NCBI GenBank assembly: GCA_900318685.1
Contig: ONLL01000013.1
Location: 20,750-84,749, forward strand
Length of the DNA stretch: 64,000 nt
Reading direction: 5' to 3'
Origin: an uncultured Prevotellaceae bacterium
GTDB taxonomy: Bacteria > Bacteroidota > Bacteroidia > Bacteroidales > Bacteroidaceae
Shown here piece after piece: positions 4,356-58,257 of the stretch. The position numbers and the translations under genes were made by a program. The first letter of the stretch is position 1. Each line of letters opens with the position of its first letter. Below the pieces are notes generated by a model. That model did not search any database, was not told where the DNA came from, and saw nothing but the letters and a program-made list of their open reading frames with translations.

Positions 4356-5021
4356 ATGAATGTACAGATAGAACCATCCTGGAAACAGCAGTTGGCTGCT
4401 GAGTTTGAGAAACCTTACTTTGAGCAGCTCACGGCAAAGGTAAGGCAGGAATACCAAACGTGTACCTGCTATCCTCCCGGTCCGCTTATCTTCAATGCTT
4501 TCAACCTATGCCCTTTCGATCAGGTGAAAGTGGTGATTATCGGGCAAGACCCTTACCACGAACCAGGACAAGCTCATGGACTGAGTTTCTCAGTGAAGGA
4601 TGGGGTGATGTATCCGCCCTCGCTGCAGAATATTTTCAAGGAAATAGAGGCCGACCTCGGCATACCAATGCCCCAGAGTGGCGATCTAACCCGCTGGGCA
4701 CAACAAGGGGTACTACTGCTCAATGCTACTCTCACAGTTCGTGCCCACGAGGCTAACAGTCATGCCCTGTTGGGATGGCGCACATTTACTGATGCTGCCA
4801 TCATGGCTCTTGCACGCCAGCGCGAACATATAGTATATATGCTTTGGGGCGGTTATGCCCGTGGCAAGGCCTATATGATCGACCGTCAGCGTAATCTTGT
4901 GCTGGAGTCCGTTCATCCCTCGCCGCTCTCTGCCAACCGAGGCGGATGGTTCGGCCAGCATCAGTTCTCACGCTGCAACGAATACCTCCGCCAAAATGGC
5001 ATCACGCCCATCAGTTGGTAG
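4356..5021 (+). CDS. ung: uracil-DNA glycosylase
   Basis: Removes uracil from DNA in base-excision repair. 221 residues, the normal size of family-1 UDG. The water-activating loop GQDPYHEPGQAHGLSFSV places the catalytic Asp at residue 65. The Leu-intercalation loop HPSPLSANRGG places the catalytic His at 187. LLLNATLTVR is also conserved. It lies 17 bp downstream of the 7TM-HD gene on the same strand and ends about 10 bp before a long repetitive non-coding element. Confidence 0.97.
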   Translation: MNVQIEPSWKQQLAAEFEKPYFEQLTAKVRQEYQTCTCYPPGPLIFNAFNLCPFDQVKVVIIGQDPYHEPGQAHGLSFSVKDGVMYPPSLQNIFKEIEADLGIPMPQSGDLTRWAQQGVLLLNATLTVRAHEANSHALLGWRTFTDAAIMALARQREHIVYMLWGGYARGKAYMIDRQRNLVLESVHPSPLSANRGGWFGQHQFSRCNEYLRQNGITPISW

Positions 5022-5030
5022 TTCGATTAT

Positions 5031-5572
5031 TTGACAAGCTTTTAGGAAAAGTCTTTATAAAAGGGCTCTCCAGAAGGGCTCTCTTGCGAGTTTGTGGCCC
5101 TTTGGTCGTAAATGGGCGAGTTCTGAAGATGTTTGCAAGTGGCTGTGAATGAGTGCATTGCATGTTTGTGCGCACTCGGAAATCCTCAAAAAAGTCCTAA
5201 AATGGGCATTTTGAGGGTCGAAAATGGTGATTTTGGGCAGCGTTTTCCGCAAGAAAAGTGAAAGCCAAACTCGAAAACGAAGTCGAAAGTATAGCACTTT
5301 GAGCTCGCTAGTATGGCACTTTGGGGTTGTTAGTATGTTGTTAGTATGGAACTTTGCGATGGCTAGTATGGCACTTTGGTATTATTCCCACCGTGGGAAT
5401 GACACGCTCCCAGCATGGGAACGATAGCAAAGTGCCATACTAGCGACCCCAAACTCGCTTTTTGCGCTTTGCCAACCCTGTTATCGCCTCAGTCAGGGGC
5501 GCAGGGTGGCTATTCGCTGGATGTTTTACCTAGAATGCTTCGACGGAGAGACCCCTTTTTTGACCAATTTTC
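5031..5572. repeat. non-coding repeat element A, between convergent ung and the DUF3109 gene
   Basis: No supported gene lies in 5022-5610. The stretch fills the gap between the 3' ends of ung (+) and the DUF3109 gene (-). Its right end (5572 down to 5530, read on the minus strand) starts GAAAATTGGTC, continues with an A run and a TCTC-rich word, and ends CATTCTAG 43 nt in. The left end of element B at 40956-40998 has the same layout, words and length. The other end (CTTGTCAA, minus strand, near 5031) and internal words (TGCAAT, ACTCATT, AACTCGC) also have counterparts in element B in the same order. A 12-bp direct repeat, AGAAGGGCTCTC-like, lies near 5060-5082. Confidence 0.7.
5208..5455. repeat. 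22-bp phased repeat array, direct then inverted
   Basis: The unit is A[CT]TTTG, six variable bases, then about CTAGTATGGC. The hexamer occurs at 5208, 5230, 5296, 5318, 5351 and 5373 on the plus strand: steps of 22, 66 (3 x 22), 22, 33 and 22. The 33 comes from one extra 11-bp piece, TTAGTATGTTG. Variable hexamers are AGGGTC, GGCAGC, AGCTCG, GGGTTG, CGATGG and GTATTA. After two small palindromes (TTCCCACCGTGGGAA at 5385-5399, TCCCAGCATGGGA near 5408-5420) the unit returns inverted: CAAAGT at 5428 and CAAACT at 5450, again 22 apart, with GCCATACTAG between. A 17-nt perfect inverted pair joins 5362-5378 with 5428-5444. Confidence 0.85.
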
Positions 5573-5610
5573 TTTACGTGGGATGGTTATTTTGTTCAAC
5601 TATTGGCAGC

Positions 5611-6222
5611 TCACTTCCTGAGCTTTTTCACCTCCTCTGCCACATCACAGAGCTCCTGATACCACTGCTCGCCAAAGCGACGGATAAGAGGCTCACGCAA
5701 AAACTGATAGAGAGGAAGATGAAGCTGCCGACCCTTCTTCCTGCCACTCTCACAGATTTCCCAGCGATGGTAGTTCAGCCCTACGCTACCATCGCTGAAT
5801 TGTTTTTCACGAACAGGGTAGAGCGCACAGCTCATGGGCTTGCAGAACTTACAGCGTCCACTTCGGAATGCCCGTTCCAGTGAACAAAGGCAATTGGGAG
5901 GTGCATCGGCAGTAGCTGATGGTGCATAGCAGGTGAACACGCAGTCTTTGCCACGAACGATACTCGTGACGAGGTCACCGTCACGATCAGTGTAAGCCAC
6001 GCCTTGAAGATCAATCACTGCCTGTGCCGATGCACTCAAGTCGCCCCAAACCACGTCAAGGGCATCTTCTATCGACGCCACCTCCTCAAGGGTAACGGGA
6101 GCCCCTGCGTCGCCCTCTACGCAGCAAGCGCCATGACATGCTTCAAGGTCGCAGCAGAACTCTTCGGTGAGGATATCCGACGACAGCAGGACACCACCTA
6201 TCTGCAGGATGGGAGGAACCAT
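5611..6222 (-). CDS. DUF3109 family cysteine-rich protein
   Basis: 203 residues, cytoplasmic (no signal peptide). Cysteine blocks occur in order: EEFCCDLEACHGACC near the N-terminus, then CVFTCY, NCLC, and GRCKFCKPMSCALYP. These match the arrangement of DUF3109 (PF11307), a Bacteroidetes family probably binding a metal or cluster. Its biochemical role is not known to me. It starts 27 bp after deoD on the same strand with no promoter seen between them, so it is likely the second gene of a deoD transcript. Confidence 0.8.
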   Translation of the reverse strand: MVPPILQIGGVLLSSDILTEEFCCDLEACHGACCVEGDAGAPVTLEEVASIEDALDVVWGDLSASAQAVIDLQGVAYTDRDGDLVTSIVRGKDCVFTCYAPSATADAPPNCLCSLERAFRSGRCKFCKPMSCALYPVREKQFSDGSVGLNYHRWEICESGRKKGRQLHLPLYQFLREPLIRRFGEQWYQELCDVAEEVKKLRK

Positions 6223-19760: not shown

Positions 19761-22019
19761 ATGATACAGACAGTTGTGAAGCGCGACGGACGAATCGTGG
19801 GCTTCAACGAACAGAAAATCATGGCTGCTATCCGCAAGGCCATGATGCAGACAGACAAGGGTGAGGACGAACACCTGATAAATCTCATAACCGACCATGT
19901 GGCTCAACGTGGAAAGGCACAGATGAGCGTGGAGGACATCCAGGACGCCATCGAGCTTGAACTCATGAAGTCCAGCCGCAAGGACGTAGCTCAGAAGTAC
20001 ATCGCCTACCGCAACCAGCGCTCCATCGCCCGCAAGGCCAAGACACGCGACATCTTCCTTGACATCGTCAACGTGAAGTCGAACGACATCACCCGAGAGA
20101 ATGCCAATATGAATGCCGACACCCCCGCCGGCATGATGATGAAGTTCGCATCAGAGTCGACAAAGCCCTTCGTCGACGACTACCTACTCTCCGACGAGGC
20201 CCGCGATGCTGTGAAGGATAACCTGCTACATATCCACGACAAAGACTACTACCCCACCAAGTCGTTCACATGCGTGCAGCATCCGCTCGACCATATCCTC
20301 AACTGTGGCTTTATAGCAGGTCATGGTGCCTCGCGCCCTGCCAAGCGCATAGAGACGGCATCTGTGCTGGCATGCATCTCGATGGAGTGCGCCCAGAACG
20401 AGATGCACGGCGGGCAGGCCATACCCGCCTTCGACTTCTATCTAGCCCCCTTCGTGCGCCTCACATATATAGAAGAGGTGAAATACTTGGAGGACCTCTA
20501 TGGCAAGGACTTCTCCGCCCTCTACGACGAGCCGCTGATGGACTACCTCAAGCAGCCGCTTGACGGACTGACCGGCATCGACCGCGTACGCCAGCATGCG
20601 ATGAATAAGACTGTGGGACGTGTGCATCAGGCTATGGAGGCATTCATTCATAACATGAACACTATCCACTCGCGCGGCGGCAACCAGGTGGTGTTTTCCA
20701 GCATCAACTACGGCACCGACACCTCTGCTGAGGGACGATGCGTTATGCGCGAGATACTGCTGTCGACCTACGAAGGCGTGGGCGGCGGCGAGACGGCCAT
20801 CTTCCCCATACAGATCTGGAAGAAGAAGCGTGGCGTGAACTACCTGCCCGAGGACCGCAATTTCGACCTCTACCAGCTCGCCTGCAAGGTGACGGCACGG
20901 CGTTTCTTCCCCAATTTCCTCAACCTCGACGCCTCGTTCAACCAGACCGACGAGTGGCGTGCCGACGACCCCCTGCGTTATGAGCATGAGGTGGCCACAA
21001 TGGGCTGTCGCACACGCGTGTTCGAGAACCGCTTCGGTCCGAAGACATCTATAGGACGCGGCAACATCTCGTTCTCCACCATCAACATCGTGCGGCTCGC
21101 AATACAATGCATGAACATCGCCGACAAAGAGCAGCGCATCGGACAGTTCTTCGCTCGTCTCGACCACATGCTCGAAGTGACGGCCAAGCAGCTCGACGAT
21201 CGTTACCAGTTCCAAAAGACTGCCCTCGTGAAGCAGTTCCCGCTGCTGATGAAGAGTCTCTGGATTGGTGCCGACAAGCTATCGCCCAACGACCGCGTGG
21301 AGAGCGTAATCAACCAGGGTACGCTGGGCATCGGATTCATCGGACTGGCCGAATGTCTGGTGGCACTCATCGGAAAGCATCATGGCGAGAGCGAGGAGGC
21401 GCAGGAGCTGGGTCTGAAGATTGTGACTTATATGCGCGACCGCGTGAACGAGTTTTCCGAGCGCTATCATCACAACTACTCGGTGCTGGCCACACCTGCT
21501 GAGGGACTGGCAGGCCGCTTTACCAAACGCGACCGCAAGGAGTTCGGATCGCTCAAAGGCATCACCGACCGCGACTACTACACCAACTCTAACCACGTGC
21601 CCGTGTACTATAAATGCTCAGCACGCCACAAGGCTGAGGTGGAAGCTCCCTATCACAACCTCACCCGCGGCGGACATATCTTCTACGTAGAGATCGACGG
21701 CGATGCCACCCACAACCCTCAGGTCATCATGAGCGTCGTTGACATGATGGACCGCCTCGACATGGGCTACGGCAGCGTAAACCACAACCGCAACCGTTGC
21801 ATGGACTGCGGATATGAGAACGCCACGCCCGACCTCAAGGAATGCCCCCGCTGCCACTCACATAACATCGACCGTCTGCAGCGCATCACAGGCTACCTCG
21901 TGGGAACCACTGACCGATGGAACTCAGGCAAGCTAGCTGAGCTCAACGACCGCGTCACTCACATCGACGACGGCGATCAGCGACTGTTTGATGATGGAGC
22001 ATTGAACATGGAACATTGA
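19761..22019 (+). CDS. nrdD: anaerobic ribonucleoside-triphosphate reductase
   Basis: 752 residues. Reduces ribonucleoside triphosphates to deoxy forms without oxygen, using a glycyl radical. The N-terminal ATP-cone (VVKRDGRIVGFNEQKIMAAIRKAM) is the allosteric site. Further on are the conserved GGQAIPAFDFYLAPF and GRGNISFSTINIVRLA blocks. The C-terminus has the Zn site CMDCGYENATPDLKECPRC and the radical loop RITGYLVG with the radical glycine at 711. The last codons and the stop lie inside a 7-bp tandem repeat. nrdG starts 17 bp later on the same strand. Confidence 0.97.
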   Translation: MIQTVVKRDGRIVGFNEQKIMAAIRKAMMQTDKGEDEHLINLITDHVAQRGKAQMSVEDIQDAIELELMKSSRKDVAQKYIAYRNQRSIARKAKTRDIFLDIVNVKSNDITRENANMNADTPAGMMMKFASESTKPFVDDYLLSDEARDAVKDNLLHIHDKDYYPTKSFTCVQHPLDHILNCGFIAGHGASRPAKRIETASVLACISMECAQNEMHGGQAIPAFDFYLAPFVRLTYIEEVKYLEDLYGKDFSALYDEPLMDYLKQPLDGLTGIDRVRQHAMNKTVGRVHQAMEAFIHNMNTIHSRGGNQVVFSSINYGTDTSAEGRCVMREILLSTYEGVGGGETAIFPIQIWKKKRGVNYLPEDRNFDLYQLACKVTARRFFPNFLNLDASFNQTDEWRADDPLRYEHEVATMGCRTRVFENRFGPKTSIGRGNISFSTINIVRLAIQCMNIADKEQRIGQFFARLDHMLEVTAKQLDDRYQFQKTALVKQFPLLMKSLWIGADKLSPNDRVESVINQGTLGIGFIGLAECLVALIGKHHGESEEAQELGLKIVTYMRDRVNEFSERYHHNYSVLATPAEGLAGRFTKRDRKEFGSLKGITDRDYYTNSNHVPVYYKCSARHKAEVEAPYHNLTRGGHIFYVEIDGDATHNPQVIMSVVDMMDRLDMGYGSVNHNRNRCMDCGYENATPDLKECPRCHSHNIDRLQRITGYLVGTTDRWNSGKLAELNDRVTHIDDGDQRLFDDGALNMEH

Positions 22020-22039
22020 ACATTGAAGATTGAACATTG
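22000..22039 (+). repeat. 7-bp tandem repeat spanning the nrdD stop and nrdG start
   Basis: Units CATTGAA, CATGGAA, CATTGAA, CATTGAA, GATTGAA and CATTG follow each other without a gap (5.7 copies). The nrdD stop (22017-22019) lies in the third unit, and the presumed TTG start of nrdG (22037) in the last. Gain or loss of one unit would shift the nrdD C-terminal frame and the intergenic spacing. Confidence 0.9.
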
Positions 22040-40913: not shown

Positions 40914-40955
40914 TTGGTTTCTATTCTGGCGATGGGAGTTGGGTTTTGGTGTCAA

Positions 40956-41355
40956 GAAAATTGGTCGAAAAAAGGCCTCTCGAAAAATACCATTCTAGAA
41001 AAGGAAGAGGGTGAAAACTGCCATTCTTATTGCTCGTTGCTGGCGGCGATGAGGCTCAAAAATGACCTTCAAGTGCCTAGAAGGCGATTTTGGTCTCGCC
41101 GGAAGGCGACTTTGTGGTGCTTAGTAAGCGACTTTGCATAGCAATCTCCGTAACCTTCGTGACCAAAGTGGCCGACGGACGTGACCAAAAGTGCCGTCGG
41201 GCGTGACCAAAGTCACCACCTCTAAAAACGTAAAATGCCCTCCTTTTGCAATATGCTCATTGTCAGAGAATTATGAACTCGCTCAAAACTCGCTCATTTT
41301 CAGCCAACGGACTTGTTGCTCAGAATTTTTAAAATATGAGAGGGCATTTGTCAAG
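40956..41355. repeat. non-coding repeat element B, between convergent GH8 and CotH genes
   Basis: It fills the rest of the gap up to 14 bp before the CotH stop. The left end starts GAAAATTGGTC, then an A run, CCTCTC and CATTCTAG, 43 nt in all, matching the right end of element A read on the minus strand. The right end has AAATGCCCTC near 41231 and GAGGGCATTT near 41340, an inverted pair about 100 bp apart, and ends TTGTCAAG. AACTCGC and CTCATT words lie between. No ORF here has coding character. Confidence 0.7.
41065..41217. repeat. 22-bp phased repeat array in element B, direct then inverted
   Basis: Direct units start at 41065, 41087, 41109 and 41131, exactly 22 apart: ACCTTC/ATTTTG/ACTTTG/ACTTTG, then the variable hexamers AAGTGC, GTCTCG, TGGTGC and CATAGC, then CTAGAAGGCG, CCGGAAGGCG and TTAGTAAGCG. 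Inverted units start GTGACCAAA at 41159, 41181 and 41203, again 22 apart. Here the hexamer next to CAAAGT is constant (CGTGAC). ACTTTG and CAAAGT halves could pair across the centre. Confidence 0.85.
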
Positions 41356-41368
41356 TATATTCACATCT

Positions 41369-44300
41369 TTATTTTCTGATGAACTTGCAGCTGACCTTAT
41401 GTCCTTGCTTGTCGGTAATCAGAGCCACATAGACGCCGTTGGGCAGATGGGCCAGCGATGCCTCGGCCATACCTGAGAGGATGGTTGCCGGCAGCTGGTC
41501 TACGTGCTGTCCAGCCAAGTTGGAGATAGTGATAGTAACATCGCTGTCGCTATTGCTGCGGATGACTAAGTTGCCTACGACGTAGCGAGCGCTGAGGCCG
41601 TTGCTTTCAGCGGCAAGGTCACGAATGCCAGTCTGGCCGGGCTGCTCGATGCTGACGGCATAGCTCGACGTGATATTGGTCTTGGCAATCGTGGGGATGT
41701 TCATCGCGATGACTTCGTTGCTGCCGTCGGGATAGCGTCCTGCCGTCTCATCGCTCTTCATCTCTGCGTAGGCCAGGTGGTCGCTCCACGACTCGTCCTT
41801 GGCTGTCAGGATGACTTCGCCGCCCTCAGCTGCCAGTTTGAAGGAGGCATGCAGCTGCGATAGTGGGTCAAGTTTGTCACACCAGATAGTGAGATAGCCG
41901 TGGGCAGGGATGATGGTCGAAGCCTTGGTGTCGCCCTTTGTAATCTGGTATTTCAGGGGCTTGTCGGGATTGTCGCTAAGGTACATTCCCTCGATGTCGA
42001 TGGGGCTGGATGTCGTGTTGTAGAGCTCCACCCAGTCGTTGCGCTTGAAGTATTCGTTCACATAGATGCCATTGGCTGCGCTCACCTCATTGATGCGAAC
42101 TGGCGTGATGCCCTGAGCAGCGAGGTCGTCGGCCGACATTGGTTCGAAGGTGGCTGTCAGACTGACGCTGCTGCCTGTGGGCAGGCTCATCTCAGCCTCT
42201 GTGCTCACGATGGCGTTGCCCTTCTTCCATCCTGTGAAGCGATAGCCTCCAGGAGCTTCGGCACGGAGAAGGACAGGAGCGAAGAGCTGTCCTTGGAAGT
42301 CGGAATAGGGTATTGCTATGCCATTAATGAACAGGCGGGCTCCCTCTGTATTGGCGTTCAGGGTCACGCTCTGCTTGGTCGCATCGCTGAGCTTCACAGG
42401 TTCGAAGTTCTTCAGGTATCCTGTGAGCCTGTCGGAGCGTCCTTTCAGCTTGCTCTTGATGGTGTTGGCAGCCCTTTCAGGCTCGTGGCCGTCATTGATG
42501 CGCTGCTGTTTCATGAGGTCGGTCATCGGCTTCACCTTGGCCAGCAGTTCGTCGACGATGGCATTGGCTTTGGTAGGCTCGAACACGCTTCCAGCCACGA
42601 TGCAGAAGGTGTCGATGAACTTGCGTCGATAGCCCTCGTGATTCAGCAGGTTGAGCAGCAGGTTGACGATATCTTTGTTGAAATTGCCTTCTCCGTTCAC
42701 CGTGCTGGCCGTCTTGAAGTCGAGGAAATAGGGGAAGGGGTTGTCATTATGCGTATTGAAATTGCGCAGGGCGAAGGCGTAGTCCAAGTCGAAACTGATG
42801 AAGCGGTAGCGCCCGTCGTTCTGACTGCGGTATGCCTTGATGTTGTTGTTGGGCCAGTCGTCGTTGTCGAGGTACATCGTGACGGCCATGTAGTTGGTGA
42901 ACTCGTCGATGTCGAGCAATGTTGCCAGCTCGTCGTACACCCCAGCATCGTTGACGTGCTTGGCGAGTTCGAAGATGCGCTTGATGACCTCGTCTGTGCC
43001 ATTCTTCATCTGCATGTTCTCGAAGGCGTCCAGCTCTTCGTCGTCATAGCCCCAGTTGGCATAGGCAAACTTGTCGTTGTTGGGCTCGCGCAGGTTCAGC
43101 ACTCCACGCAGCTCGCCGTTCACATATTCTATAATAGGTACGTATGACTGTACGTCGAGGTCGATGCCCGAGCGCTGGATGATGGTCTCAAGGGCAGGGT
43201 CGAGGAAACGGGCGTTGTGGGTCCAGATGTCATTGCCGCCATTGCGCACGAGGATGGTTTTGTTGCGGATGTATGGCTTCTGTGGGAAGAAGGAATAGTC
43301 GAAGCGGTTCAGTCCGTCGTAGATCTTGCTCGACTTCAGCTTGAAGGAACGGTAGCGCTGCGAGCGTGTCCATCCGCCCGACACCTTGATGTTGACATCC
43401 TGGTTGAACTCCATCTCGCCGTCGGTATTGATGAAACTGAAGTTCACGGGTCGTTCCCAGGGCTGGTTGTAGTTGCGTGGCCAGTCCTGTCCGTTGCCAG
43501 TCTTGCCGTTGGTGCCGTCACCGTCGCAGTCGAGGCCGATCTTGGGGTCAGTGAAGTGTCGTTTGTCACCTACGATCGAGATGACGGGCAACGTGTAATT
43601 GTTGCTGGTCTGGATGTAGCTGCGAGTGACGGGTACGCTGGGCAGGAAGCCGTCTTGGAACAGGCGGAATGTGTAGTTGGTGGTTTTCGAGACGGTGAAC
43701 AATCCGTCCTTGCTCTCCTGACTGGCATCTGAGTTGGCAGAGCCATCGTCGAACGACTCCCACGAGATATTGTCGAAATAGAAGTTGTTGTCGGTATTCT
43801 TCTGGTAGTTCAGGTTGAAGGCGATGGTCTGCAGCGTGCAAGTGACGTCACCTTCGTCCCAGCCGCCCCACCAGCCGCCTCCGCCGCTCCAGTTCTCGCC
43901 GGCCTGGCTCTGGGTTACGTCTCCTTCATAGACTATCTCCTGCCATTCGGTAGTGACATTGTAGCTACCGTCCAGCATGTTGCCTGTGATGTAGTCGCCA
44001 GGTGTCCTGTGAGCCTGAACGTTGATGCGCGAAGGCTTGTCGGCACGAACGCTCATGCGGAAACGGTAGTGCTCGCCAGTATTCCAAACGTGATCGGGGG
44101 TGTAGACAAAGAACTGGGTAGTCCACTCGTTGGCAGCTCCTGATACGGAGTGAACTTTCACACCACGTGAGCCATCCACGCCTATGCCGTCGGTGATGCG
44201 GTTCACATCGCCATTGCCATTGCCGTCGCGACATACGAAGGACGAGGCATCCGTTCCTTCGCAGTTGCCGTTGATGACATAGTCCGTCCAGGGTGAGACT

Positions 44301-55771: not shown

Positions 55772-58201
55772 ATGGGAAAAAGACTAGCAATGGTGGTGGC
55801 CGTGCTATGGATGGCGACGGCAGCCACAACCGCGAAACCCGTCGACTATGAGATTGGCGGGACGAAGGTGAGCGTGGAGTTCTACACTCCAGGCATCGTC
55901 AGGGTGGTGAAGGCCCCCGTCGGACATGATTATGAGAAGAAGAGCCTTGTGGTGACGGCTGAGCCTCAGGACGTGATTGTGCGTCAGAGTGGCAACACGC
56001 TGCAATCCAGCTTGTTGACCGTCAGGATAGACGGGCGCACAGGTGCGCTGACCTTCGCTGCCAAGGGACGCACCCTGCTGCGCGAGAAGCATGGAGCCAC
56101 CTTCGATGAGCGTGCCAATGGTCCTGACCGCGGCAGCTACCGCGTCGCCCAGACGTTCCTGCTCGACCGCGACGAGGCCATCTATGGCCTTGGCACCATC
56201 CAGAACGGCAAGATCAATCGTCGTGGCGAGCACAAGCTCATGGAGCAGTCGAACCTTGAGGACTTCCAGAATGTGCTCCAGTCGGTGAAGGGCTACGGCC
56301 TGTTCTGGGACAATTACTCGCGCACCCAGTTCGACGATGATCCCGTGGCAGGCATGAGCTTCTCGTCGGAGGTGGGCGACTGCGTCGACTACTACCTCAT
56401 GTATGGCGGTTCGGCCGACGGCGTCATCGGGCAGATGCGTGAGCTGAGCGGCGATGTGCCCATGTTCCCCCTCTGGACCTTCGGCTACTGGCAGAGCAAG
56501 GAGCGCTATAAGAGCGTCAGCGAGGTGCTGGGCGTCGTCGACAAGTACCGCGAGCTGCAGGTGCCCCTCGACGGCATCATCCAGGACTGGCAGTACTGGG
56601 GCTCCAACTACCTGTGGAACGCCATGGACTTCCTCGCCGAGGACTATGCCAACGGCCGGCAGATGATAGAACAGGTGCATCGTAAGAACGCCCACTTCAT
56701 GATCTCCATCTGGGCCAGCTTCGGACCGATGACCAAGGCCTATCGCCAGCTGGTGGCCAAGGGACTGCTCTACAGCTTCGAGACATGGCCGCAGAGCGGC
56801 ATACCCGGCTGGCCTCCTAAGATGGACTATCCTTCGGGAGTGCGTGTGTACAACGCTTTCTCCAAGGAGGCACGCGACATCTACTGGCAGAACCTGAAGA
56901 ACCTCTATGACATGGGTGTCGACGGCTGGTGGATGGACTCTACCGACCCCGATTTCTTCAACCCCAAGGACGAGCAGTACGACGAGAAAGCCGGCATCAG
57001 CAGCACCTGGCGCCGCCTGCGCAATGCCTTCCCCCTGGAGACGGTGAAGGGCGTGTATGAGGCCCAGCGCAAGACGCTGCAGTCGGCCGACAACACCCAG
57101 CCCGAGAAGCGCGTGTTCATCATGACCCGCTCGGCCTTTGCCGGACAGCAGCACTACGGCTCCAACATGTGGAGCGGCGACGTGAACTCATCGTGGGACA
57201 TGCTGCGCAAGCAGTTGCCTGCAGGACTGAGCTATACCCTCACAGGCAATCCCAACTTCAATACCGACATCGGCGGGTTCTTCTGCTCGTCCTACAACAA
57301 CCGCGGTGCAGGCTCAGCACCACGCAATCCGCAGTATCAGGAGCTCTATGTGCGCTGGATGCAGTACGCCCTGTTCTGCCCCATCTTCCGCAGTCACGGT
57401 GAAGCCGCTCCGCGCGAGATATGGCAGTTCGGCAAGAAGGGCGAGACCGTCTACGACGCCATCGAGAAGGCCATCCGCCTGCGCTATCGCCTCATACCTT
57501 ATCTCTATAGCACCGCTTGGCAGGTCACCTCTGGCAACGGCAGCTATATGCGTCCGCTGTTTAGCGACTTCGTGGCAGACCGCAAGGTGTGGGACATAGC
57601 CGACGAGTTCCTCTTCGGAAGCAGCATCCTTGCAGCCCCCATCGTCGAGGCACAGTACACCAAGGAGCAGGTGGTGCGTGGCGACGCCATGTCGGGATGG
57701 AACCACGAGGCAGCAGCTGCCGGCGAGTCTACGGCAGGCGACTTCACGGCGCCACGTACGGCCACGAAGTATCTGCCTAAAGGAACCGTGTGGTACGACT
57801 TCTGGACAGGCAACAAGTACTGGGGAGGTCAGACGCTCACCATCGAGACACAGCTCGACCGCGTGCCCATGTTCGTGCGTGCCGGAGGCATCGTGCCCCT
57901 GGGCCCGGAGATGCAGTATGCCGGCGAGAAGATCTGGGATGCACTCGAGCTGCGCGTCTATCCCGGTGCCGACGGATCGTTCACGCTCTACGAGGATGAG
58001 GGCGACAGCTATAACTACGAGCGCGGCATGTATTCCACGATCACCTTCAAGTGGAGCGACCGCAGCCGCACCATGACCATCGGCCAGCGGCAGGGCAGCT
58101 ATCCCGGCATGTTGCAGCAGCGCCAGTTCACCTTCGTACTCCCCAACGGCATCCAGAAGACCGTCGACTATCAGGGCGCAGAGCTGAAAGTCAACCTGTA
58201 G
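55772..58201 (+). CDS. glycoside hydrolase family 31, probable alpha-xylosidase
   Basis: 809 residues from ATG 55772 (MGKRLAMVVAVLWMATAATTAK, signal peptide). N-terminal beta domain, then a TIM barrel: FPLWTFGYWQSKERYKS, IIQDWQYWGSNYLWN, catalytic nucleophile Asp389 in GVDGWWMDSTDPDF, and acid-base region NMWSGDVNSSWDMLRKQLPAGLSYTLTG. FLFGSSILAAPIV and the C-terminal DEGDSYNYERG complete the family pattern. YicI-like alpha-xylosidases act on xyloglucan or isoprimeverose-type ends. The last 49 bases are duplicated in tandem just after the stop. Confidence 0.92.
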   Translation: MGKRLAMVVAVLWMATAATTAKPVDYEIGGTKVSVEFYTPGIVRVVKAPVGHDYEKKSLVVTAEPQDVIVRQSGNTLQSSLLTVRIDGRTGALTFAAKGRTLLREKHGATFDERANGPDRGSYRVAQTFLLDRDEAIYGLGTIQNGKINRRGEHKLMEQSNLEDFQNVLQSVKGYGLFWDNYSRTQFDDDPVAGMSFSSEVGDCVDYYLMYGGSADGVIGQMRELSGDVPMFPLWTFGYWQSKERYKSVSEVLGVVDKYRELQVPLDGIIQDWQYWGSNYLWNAMDFLAEDYANGRQMIEQVHRKNAHFMISIWASFGPMTKAYRQLVAKGLLYSFETWPQSGIPGWPPKMDYPSGVRVYNAFSKEARDIYWQNLKNLYDMGVDGWWMDSTDPDFFNPKDEQYDEKAGISSTWRRLRNAFPLETVKGVYEAQRKTLQSADNTQPEKRVFIMTRSAFAGQQHYGSNMWSGDVNSSWDMLRKQLPAGLSYTLTGNPNFNTDIGGFFCSSYNNRGAGSAPRNPQYQELYVRWMQYALFCPIFRSHGEAAPREIWQFGKKGETVYDAIEKAIRLRYRLIPYLYSTAWQVTSGNGSYMRPLFSDFVADRKVWDIADEFLFGSSILAAPIVEAQYTKEQVVRGDAMSGWNHEAAAAGESTAGDFTAPRTATKYLPKGTVWYDFWTGNKYWGGQTLTIETQLDRVPMFVRAGGIVPLGPEMQYAGEKIWDALELRVYPGADGSFTLYEDEGDSYNYERGMYSTITFKWSDRSRTMTIGQRQGSYPGMLQQRQFTFVLPNGIQKTVDYQGAELKVNL

Positions 58202-58250
58202 CCAGAAGACCGCCGACTATCAAGGCGCAGAGCTGAAAGCCAACCTGTAG
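58153..58250 (+). repeat. 49-bp tandem duplication of the GH31 3' end
   Basis: Bases 58153-58201 (CCAGAAGACC ... CAACCTGTAG, including the stop) are repeated at 58202-58250 with three substitutions and no spacer. Because 49 is not a multiple of three, the second copy is out of frame with the first and is not translated. Confidence 0.95.
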
Positions 58251-58257
58251 CCTCATC

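What the first reader, a model, noticed from the sequence alone, without database searches (positions are those of the whole stretch)
5208..5455. 22-bp phased array with constant and variable parts, direct then inverted
Units A[CT]TTTG-N6-CTAGTATGGC keep a 22-bp register from 5208 to 5378, including one 66-bp step and one 33-bp step made by an extra 11-bp half unit, and then return inverted at 5428 and 5450, again 22 apart. 16 bases are conserved while the central six vary freely. 22 bp is two helical turns, so every conserved face lies on the same side of the DNA. This is neither a CRISPR (units far too short) nor a simple microsatellite. Possible roles: an array for a nucleoid or segregation protein, an RNA with stacked hairpins, or a guide-like array with six-base spacers.
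Basis: seen in the sequence. Interest (0 to 1): 0.85.

Follow-up and report, generated by a model that had tools for sequence, protein, structure and literature searches.

The report
Dispersed non-coding element with 22-bp arrays
The 22-base array is the core of a roughly 600-base non-coding DNA element scattered between genes in some Prevotella genomes; the 22-base step is kept while the repeated sequence itself is replaced between genomes, and in one species neighbouring copies keep at least about 8,000 bases apart.

Summary
The array is real but is only part of the feature. It is the core of a non-coding element (window about 5022-5604, minus orientation) lying between ung and a DUF3109 gene. 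This genome holds about 20 copies, a diverged one in this window at about 40950-41376. Nine of 13 aligned copies differ in length only by whole 22-bp units. I found no inverted ends, no target duplication, no coding signature and no Rfam match for the element. Relatives of its right end occur in a minority of sampled Prevotella genomes. In 35 of 53 copies from 18 genomes the best internal period is 22 bp (flank controls 3 of 65 and 1 of 51), mostly with unrelated unit sequences. In Hoylesella timonensis (about 75 copies) 13 of 14 complete copies have identical length at about 77% identity, and in 764 kb rescanned none of 39 neighbour gaps is under 8 kb (about 14 expected). Best reading: a non-autonomous dispersed repeat of the PINSR/BrickBuilt kind, whose helically phased units act as protein-binding double-stranded DNA (inferred). 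A chromosome-organising role is not excluded. The guide-array idea is not supported; the 'free' six bases are constrained.

The parts
5022..5604 (-). whole element copy 1, between the stop codon of ung and that of the DUF3109 gene
   Evidence: alignment of 13 copies; intergenic length 589 bp; genes by Pfam. Ends are those of the alignment, uncertain by a few bases
5286..5378 (+). 22-bp array: four units at 5286, 5308, 5341 and 5363 with an extra 11-bp half unit
5385..5399 (.). first central palindrome TTCCCACCGTGGGAA
   Evidence: read; conserved in the alignment
5408..5420 (.). second central palindrome TCCCAGCATGGGA, one 22-bp step after the first
   Evidence: read
5428..5443 (-). inverted copy of the 16-base unit
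5021..5153 (-). conserved right end of the element, the part used for models R1 and R2
5540..5604 (-). conserved left end of the element
   Evidence: alignment
40950..41376 (+). second, diverged copy of the element with its own 22-bp units; outer ends approximate
   Evidence: TRF period 22 at 41158-41213; sequence read
41256..41364 (+). conserved right end of the second copy
   Evidence: R1 match, R2 match G000:C26:62005-62113

Best explanation
A non-coding, non-autonomous dispersed DNA repeat of Prevotella, about 584 bp here. SHOWN: it is a multicopy intergenic element; this copy stands where sampled relatives have none; no inverted ends, target duplication or coding signature were found; direct and inverted 22-bp units surround palindromes; copies gain and lose whole 22-bp units; in other genomes the 22-bp step is kept while the unit sequence is mostly unrelated; in H. 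timonensis copies keep their length and stay at least 8 kb apart. INFERRED: it works as double-stranded DNA; each 22-bp unit is a site for one protein or dimer on the same face of the helix, so pitch and length are selected while sequence can change together with the protein; it spread by an unidentified recombinase; copies exchange sequence with each other; insertion close to another copy is blocked or selected against.
For: Genome-wide 22-bp arrays; 26 matches of a 551-bp copy in the genome, ten of them over 500 or more bases; nine of 13 aligned copies differ only by multiples of 22 bp; absent between ung and DUF3109 in 27 of 27 relatives that hold both genes (23 gaps too short, four read by eye); not coding; lag 22 best in 35 of 53 copies against 3 of 65 and 1 of 51 controls, unit sequences mostly at shuffled level; 14 of 15 copies of one length at 77% identity; 1 indel event per 464 substitutions in orthologous copies against 20 per 639 in flanking intergenic DNA; in 2 of 9 testable copies another copy is closer than the orthologue; minimum spacing; 5 of 5 copies at the same place in a second strain.
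Against: No recombinase or autonomous copy was identified; no fresh insertion or strain-level empty site was seen (5 of 5 shared); no binding protein is known; the H. timonensis element has no visible 22-bp array (best lag not 22 in 18 of its 21 copies) and only a weak 11/22 signal; the element is missing from most sampled genomes of the genus, so it is dispensable in general.
Confidence: 0.55

Rival explanations
1. A host chromosome-organising site: platforms of phased sites for a nucleoid, condensin or gyrase-like protein, held at intervals along the chromosome.
For: Sharp minimum spacing and fewer short gaps than intergenic-slot nulls; kept in both H. timonensis strains; length constraint; helical phasing.
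Against: Found in a minority of sampled genomes of the genus; no orientation rule, 27 of 62 neighbours point the same way; long gaps up to 153 kb; minimum spacing equally fits insertion immunity.
Confidence: 0.2
2. A family of structured non-coding RNAs, dispersed by duplication.
For: Strong single-strand folds; 12 of 61 consensus pairs with a kept two-sided change.
Against: Covariation term -0.15 kcal/mol; in the H. timonensis palindrome one two-sided change in 27 pairs, two central pairs broken in 12 of 15 copies; no Rfam match to the element at gathering score, only four sub-threshold plant or animal microRNA matches.
Confidence: 0.08
3. A passive minisatellite made by replication slippage that hitch-hikes in a dead insertion sequence.
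For: Unit number varies between copies; BrickBuilt of P. gingivalis is described as a MITE that trapped a 23-nt repeat.
Against: The same period with unrelated units in other genomes and few indels outside arrays.
Confidence: 0.05

Closest known systems
[quoted passage not shown] abstract and section 14 read)
   Same: Dispersed, intergenic, judged non-coding, no terminal inverted repeats, high copy number (177 and 184), about three quarters shared between two strains.
   Different: 188-bp consensus, no phased array mentioned in the section read; its sequence is in a figure not held, so homology could not be tested.
BrickBuilt MITE of Porphyromonas gingivalis (PMC4596501; abstract, passages and section 8 read)
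   Same: Intergenic element of about the same length with an internal direct-repeat array, predicted long stem loops, about 19 copies.
   Different: 23-nt unit, 12-bp IS5-like inverted ends, array outside inverted arms not described as conserved in pitch with changing sequence.
REP/REPIN palindromes with RAYT transposases (recalled; only listings seen)
   Same: Dispersed intergenic palindromes.
   Different: Much shorter; Y1 transposase absent from this genome.
Iteron arrays of plasmid origins and Mu/Tn7 end-site arrays (recalled, not looked up)
   Same: Helically phased sites of about 22 bp whose sequence differs between systems; Mu and Tn7 show target immunity.
   Different: No replication or transposase gene in the element, arrays lie inside, not at ends, and tens of chromosomal copies.

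Membership tests
MITE | terminal inverted repeats | tested here: not met
   Inverted end scores at shuffled level for three families (G000, G287, H. timonensis); short or very degenerate ends would be missed
MITE | target-site duplication | tested here: not met
   No consistent k-mer shared by the two flanks in 13, 12 and 15 copies; old copies could have lost it
MITE | short, non-coding, multicopy, intergenic | tested here: met
BrickBuilt | 23-nt tandem unit | tested here: not met
   unit is 22 bp
BrickBuilt | IS5-like inverted ends | tested here: not met
   no inverted ends of any kind found; the published end sequence itself was not searched
PINSR | 188-bp consensus sequence | not testable with these tools
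   sequence is in a figure; text of section 14 only
PINSR | intergenic, non-coding, no inverted ends, shared between strains | tested here: met
REP/REPIN | cognate RAYT (Y1_Tnp) in the genome | tested here: not met
   PF01797 absent from G000, G287, G422 and G070, which hold many copies; present in 7 of 16 genomes searched, among them G029
CRISPR or guide array | unique spacers between constant repeats | tested here: not met
   22-bp units; the six-base part is strongly biased and recurs between units
known structured RNA | match to an Rfam family | tested here: not met
   17 loci at gathering score give one tRNA beside a copy; window region at E up to 1 gives four sub-threshold microRNA matches
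structured RNA in general | compensatory base changes | tested here: inconclusive
   12 of 61 pairs with a kept two-sided change but covariation term -0.15; one in 27 pairs of the H. timonensis palindrome

The most novel reading that the evidence does not exclude
A chromosome-wide, helically phased architectural element: a platform of 22-bp sites that keeps pitch and length while its sequence turns over with its binding protein, is exchanged between copies, and is held at least 8 kb apart, as domain boundaries or condensin or gyrase stations would be.
Probability: 0.2. Interest if true: 0.85.

Novelty: new variant of a known kind. Interest (0 to 1): 0.62.

Why it matters
Dispersed bacterial repeats are mostly treated as remains of transposons. 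Here pitch (22 bp), length and chromosomal spacing are kept while sequence is replaced, which points to something read through DNA geometry. The sharp minimum between copies in a cultured species makes the choice between immunity of a mobile repeat and a chromosome-organising role directly testable.

Tried and rejected
Protein-coding right half: 7 of 8 main-family copies have no stop in a 92-codon frame, but substitutions are even over codon positions, 433/348/383. Guide array. Known RNA. REP/RAYT. Phage or plasmid origin: no blastn match to one copy in plasmids or phages; in viral contigs the 16-mer gave 4 contigs with one site each, not examined further, and two other patterns gave none. Terminal direct repeats as a general signature: above all 500 shuffles in G287 only (40 against 33), not in H. 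timonensis (19 against 23) or G000 (15 against 30). Insertions inside H. timonensis copies: the six short ones looked at are mostly runs of N. Orientation rule along the chromosome: none. Literature: one search found no paper; from the listings I took BrickBuilt and PINSR as closest; of PMC5771137 I saw passages.

Full report
What is in the window. Four forward units at 5286-5378 and one inverted unit at 5428-5443 are real. The 16-mer occurs 35 times with up to 2 mismatches in the 3.96-Mb genome, in 13 places, mostly at 22-bp steps; the reversed pattern occurs once. Reading those places shows that 11 of the 13 arrays are the core of a longer repeated element. A 551-bp query finds 26 matches in the genome, ten covering 500 or more query bases. 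Thirteen copies were aligned; a half copy (C45) was left out of alignments A1 and A2. In the main family the plan is: conserved left segment, 22-bp array facing the centre, one or two palindromes one 22-bp step apart, inverted array, conserved right segment. Lengths between the alignment ends are 594 (six copies), 616, 572, 550, 595, 584, 573 and 562, so nine of 13 differ by whole 22-bp units.

Insertion. In the window the element fills the 589 bp between ung (PF03167) and a DUF3109 gene (PF11307). Of 29 relatives whose locus was read, 27 hold both genes. From ung to the start of the aligned DUF3109 part the gap is 3-112 bp in 23 of them; in the other four it is 166, 202, 829 and about 1,300 bp and by eye contains other sequence. 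In all 27 the two genes point the same way, so in this genome DUF3109 is also turned round.

Not a gene, not a known RNA, not a classical transposon. Substitutions are even over codon positions (433/348/383). Rfam gives no match to the element. One copy folds far better than shuffles, as inverted arrays must; the consensus fold has 12 of 61 pairs with a kept two-sided change but a covariation term of only -0.15, and the H. timonensis palindrome has one two-sided change and two central pairs broken in 12 of 15 copies. No inverted ends and no target duplication were found. The Y1 (RAYT) transposase is absent from this genome, G287, G422 and G070, but present in G029. Plasmid and phage collections hold nothing similar to the copy searched.

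Relatives. A model of the right end (R1) hits 5 of 299 genomes of the genus, this genome included. A wider one (R2) hits 28 of 398, this genome included, at E up to 0.001 with only 8 candidates scored per genome; in a family-wide sample of 301 genomes it hits only this genome at E up to 0.0001 (11 candidates scored). These are lower bounds. With 150 candidates scored, matches at E up to 0.01 number 21 in this genome, 68 in G029, 38 in G287, 1 each in G031 and G065, 0 in G035. By contig names and lengths G029 is Hoylesella timonensis S9-PR14, G422 is H. timonensis DSM 22865 and G070 is Prevotella sp. BV3P1. R1 and R2 also recognise the second copy in this window at 41256-41364.

Phase without sequence. 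In the 500 bp before the conserved right end, lag 22 is the best of lags 12-44 in 35 of 53 copies with enough sequence; the same test gives 3 of 65 downstream and 1 of 51 far upstream. Copies of one genome are related, so the count by genome matters: 8 of 18 genomes have a copy with best lag 22 at 66% match or more, and ten copies, five of them from G029, have 44 as best lag. Consensus units from 14 copies of 10 genomes match each other at 8-13 of 22 positions, against shuffled units (mean 10.2, 95th percentile 12), except among four copies of G287 and G238 (15-20) and between L179 and L190 (15). So pitch is kept while sequence is mostly replaced. The H. timonensis element shows no clear array; its best self-match lags are 11 and 22, a weak signal.

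Length and turnover. Of 21 H. timonensis S9-PR14 loci, 14 have both ends on the contig (seven are cut by contig ends); with one copy from G070 that makes 15, of which 14 are 429 bp and one 430 (one copy from G276 without the left part was not used). Mean ungapped identity of the 14 is 77%, and the tree length corresponds to about 1,110 substitutions. Between the two H. timonensis strains five of five copies tested lie at the same place with the same distance between flanks, about 493 bp. Orthologous copies differ more than flanking intergenic DNA (89.0% against 93.0% identity) but hold 1 indel event in 4,208 bases and 464 substitutions, against 20 events in 9,128 bases and 639 substitutions. 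In 2 of 9 testable copies (L156, L157) another copy in the other strain is closer than the orthologue, and in L153 most differences sit in one block. I infer exchange between copies plus selection on length.

Spacing. In G422 75 strong matches give 62 neighbour gaps; 61 are at least 8.3 kb, and 0 of 20,000 random placements are as depleted, also when placed only within the occupied span. The one short gap is a copy split by a run of N. To exclude a search artefact I fetched three stretches (764 kb) and rescanned them with an iterated HMM; the reversed sequence gave no hit. Result: 42 loci, 39 gaps, minimum 8.06 kb, CV 0.51 against 0.93 at random, none under 8 kb against 14.1 expected, or 14.3 when copies are dealt to intergenic slots, where no simulation had fewer than 5. 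Hits closer than 3 kb were merged first: five pairs, each the complementary parts of one copy with mostly N between them. One copy split by about 24 kb of other DNA was counted as two loci. Gaps are not strictly periodic, and long ones occur: 61 kb in the rescanned part, up to 153 kb; the 61-kb gap holds an integrase and DDE transposase genes. The other strain gives 25 gaps, minimum 8.36 kb (same species, so not independent); G070 nine gaps, minimum 9.4 kb; G287 nine, minimum 14.9 kb, the last two with little power. A model-free repeat search on one contig gives only these copies at depth 4 or more. Context differs: in G422 21 tandem, 14 divergent, 7 convergent gene pairs, in this genome 12, 1 and 5, two undetermined.

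Reading. The element is a dispersed non-coding repeat of a kind known in this group: PINSR (no inverted ends, intergenic, 177 copies) and BrickBuilt (23-nt array in a MITE). The conserved 22-bp pitch with replaced sequence, the length constraint and the minimum spacing I did not find in the sections and passages read or in the listings. I commit to a non-autonomous mobile repeat working as protein-binding double-stranded DNA (0.55). A chromosome-organising role is the boldest reading not excluded (0.2).

Noticed in passing
window 5611-6222: The DUF3109 gene is turned round relative to 27 of 27 relatives that hold both it and ung; in one of them (L274) the neighbour order ung, DUF3109, phosphorylase gene is otherwise the same.
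   Followed up: partly
window 58153-58252: Two tandem copies of a 49-bp unit, 94% matches.
   Followed up: no
window 21994-22039: Short tandem array of period 14/7.
   Followed up: no
L055, L056, L058, L060, L062, L092 (G035) and L054 (G031): Intergenic arrays of the palindrome ATTCCCACCGTGGGAAT at 22-bp steps without the rest of the element.
   Followed up: no
G422 C6:51053-75187 (L314-L315): A copy of the element is split by about 24 kb of other DNA whose open frames look by eye like integrase, relaxase and ABC-transporter genes, as if an integrative element had entered the repeat.
   Followed up: partly
L154, L159, L160, L161, L165, L169, L171 and runs of N in G422: Contig ends and assembly gaps often fall inside the element, which suggests that it is hard to sequence or assemble.
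   Followed up: no
L011 and L015, last 170 bases: Two contigs of this genome end 172 bases after a copy with the same flank, probably another repeat.
   Followed up: no
L079-L083 and G287 copies: The most conserved block CTCATTATCARCAACTTACAAA is itself 22 nt long and lies in phase with the arrays in the copies printed.
   Followed up: partly
L334-L353 (G085): Two other small dispersed repeat families, seven copies of 83-91 bp and five of 158-196 bp, in 400 kb.
   Followed up: no
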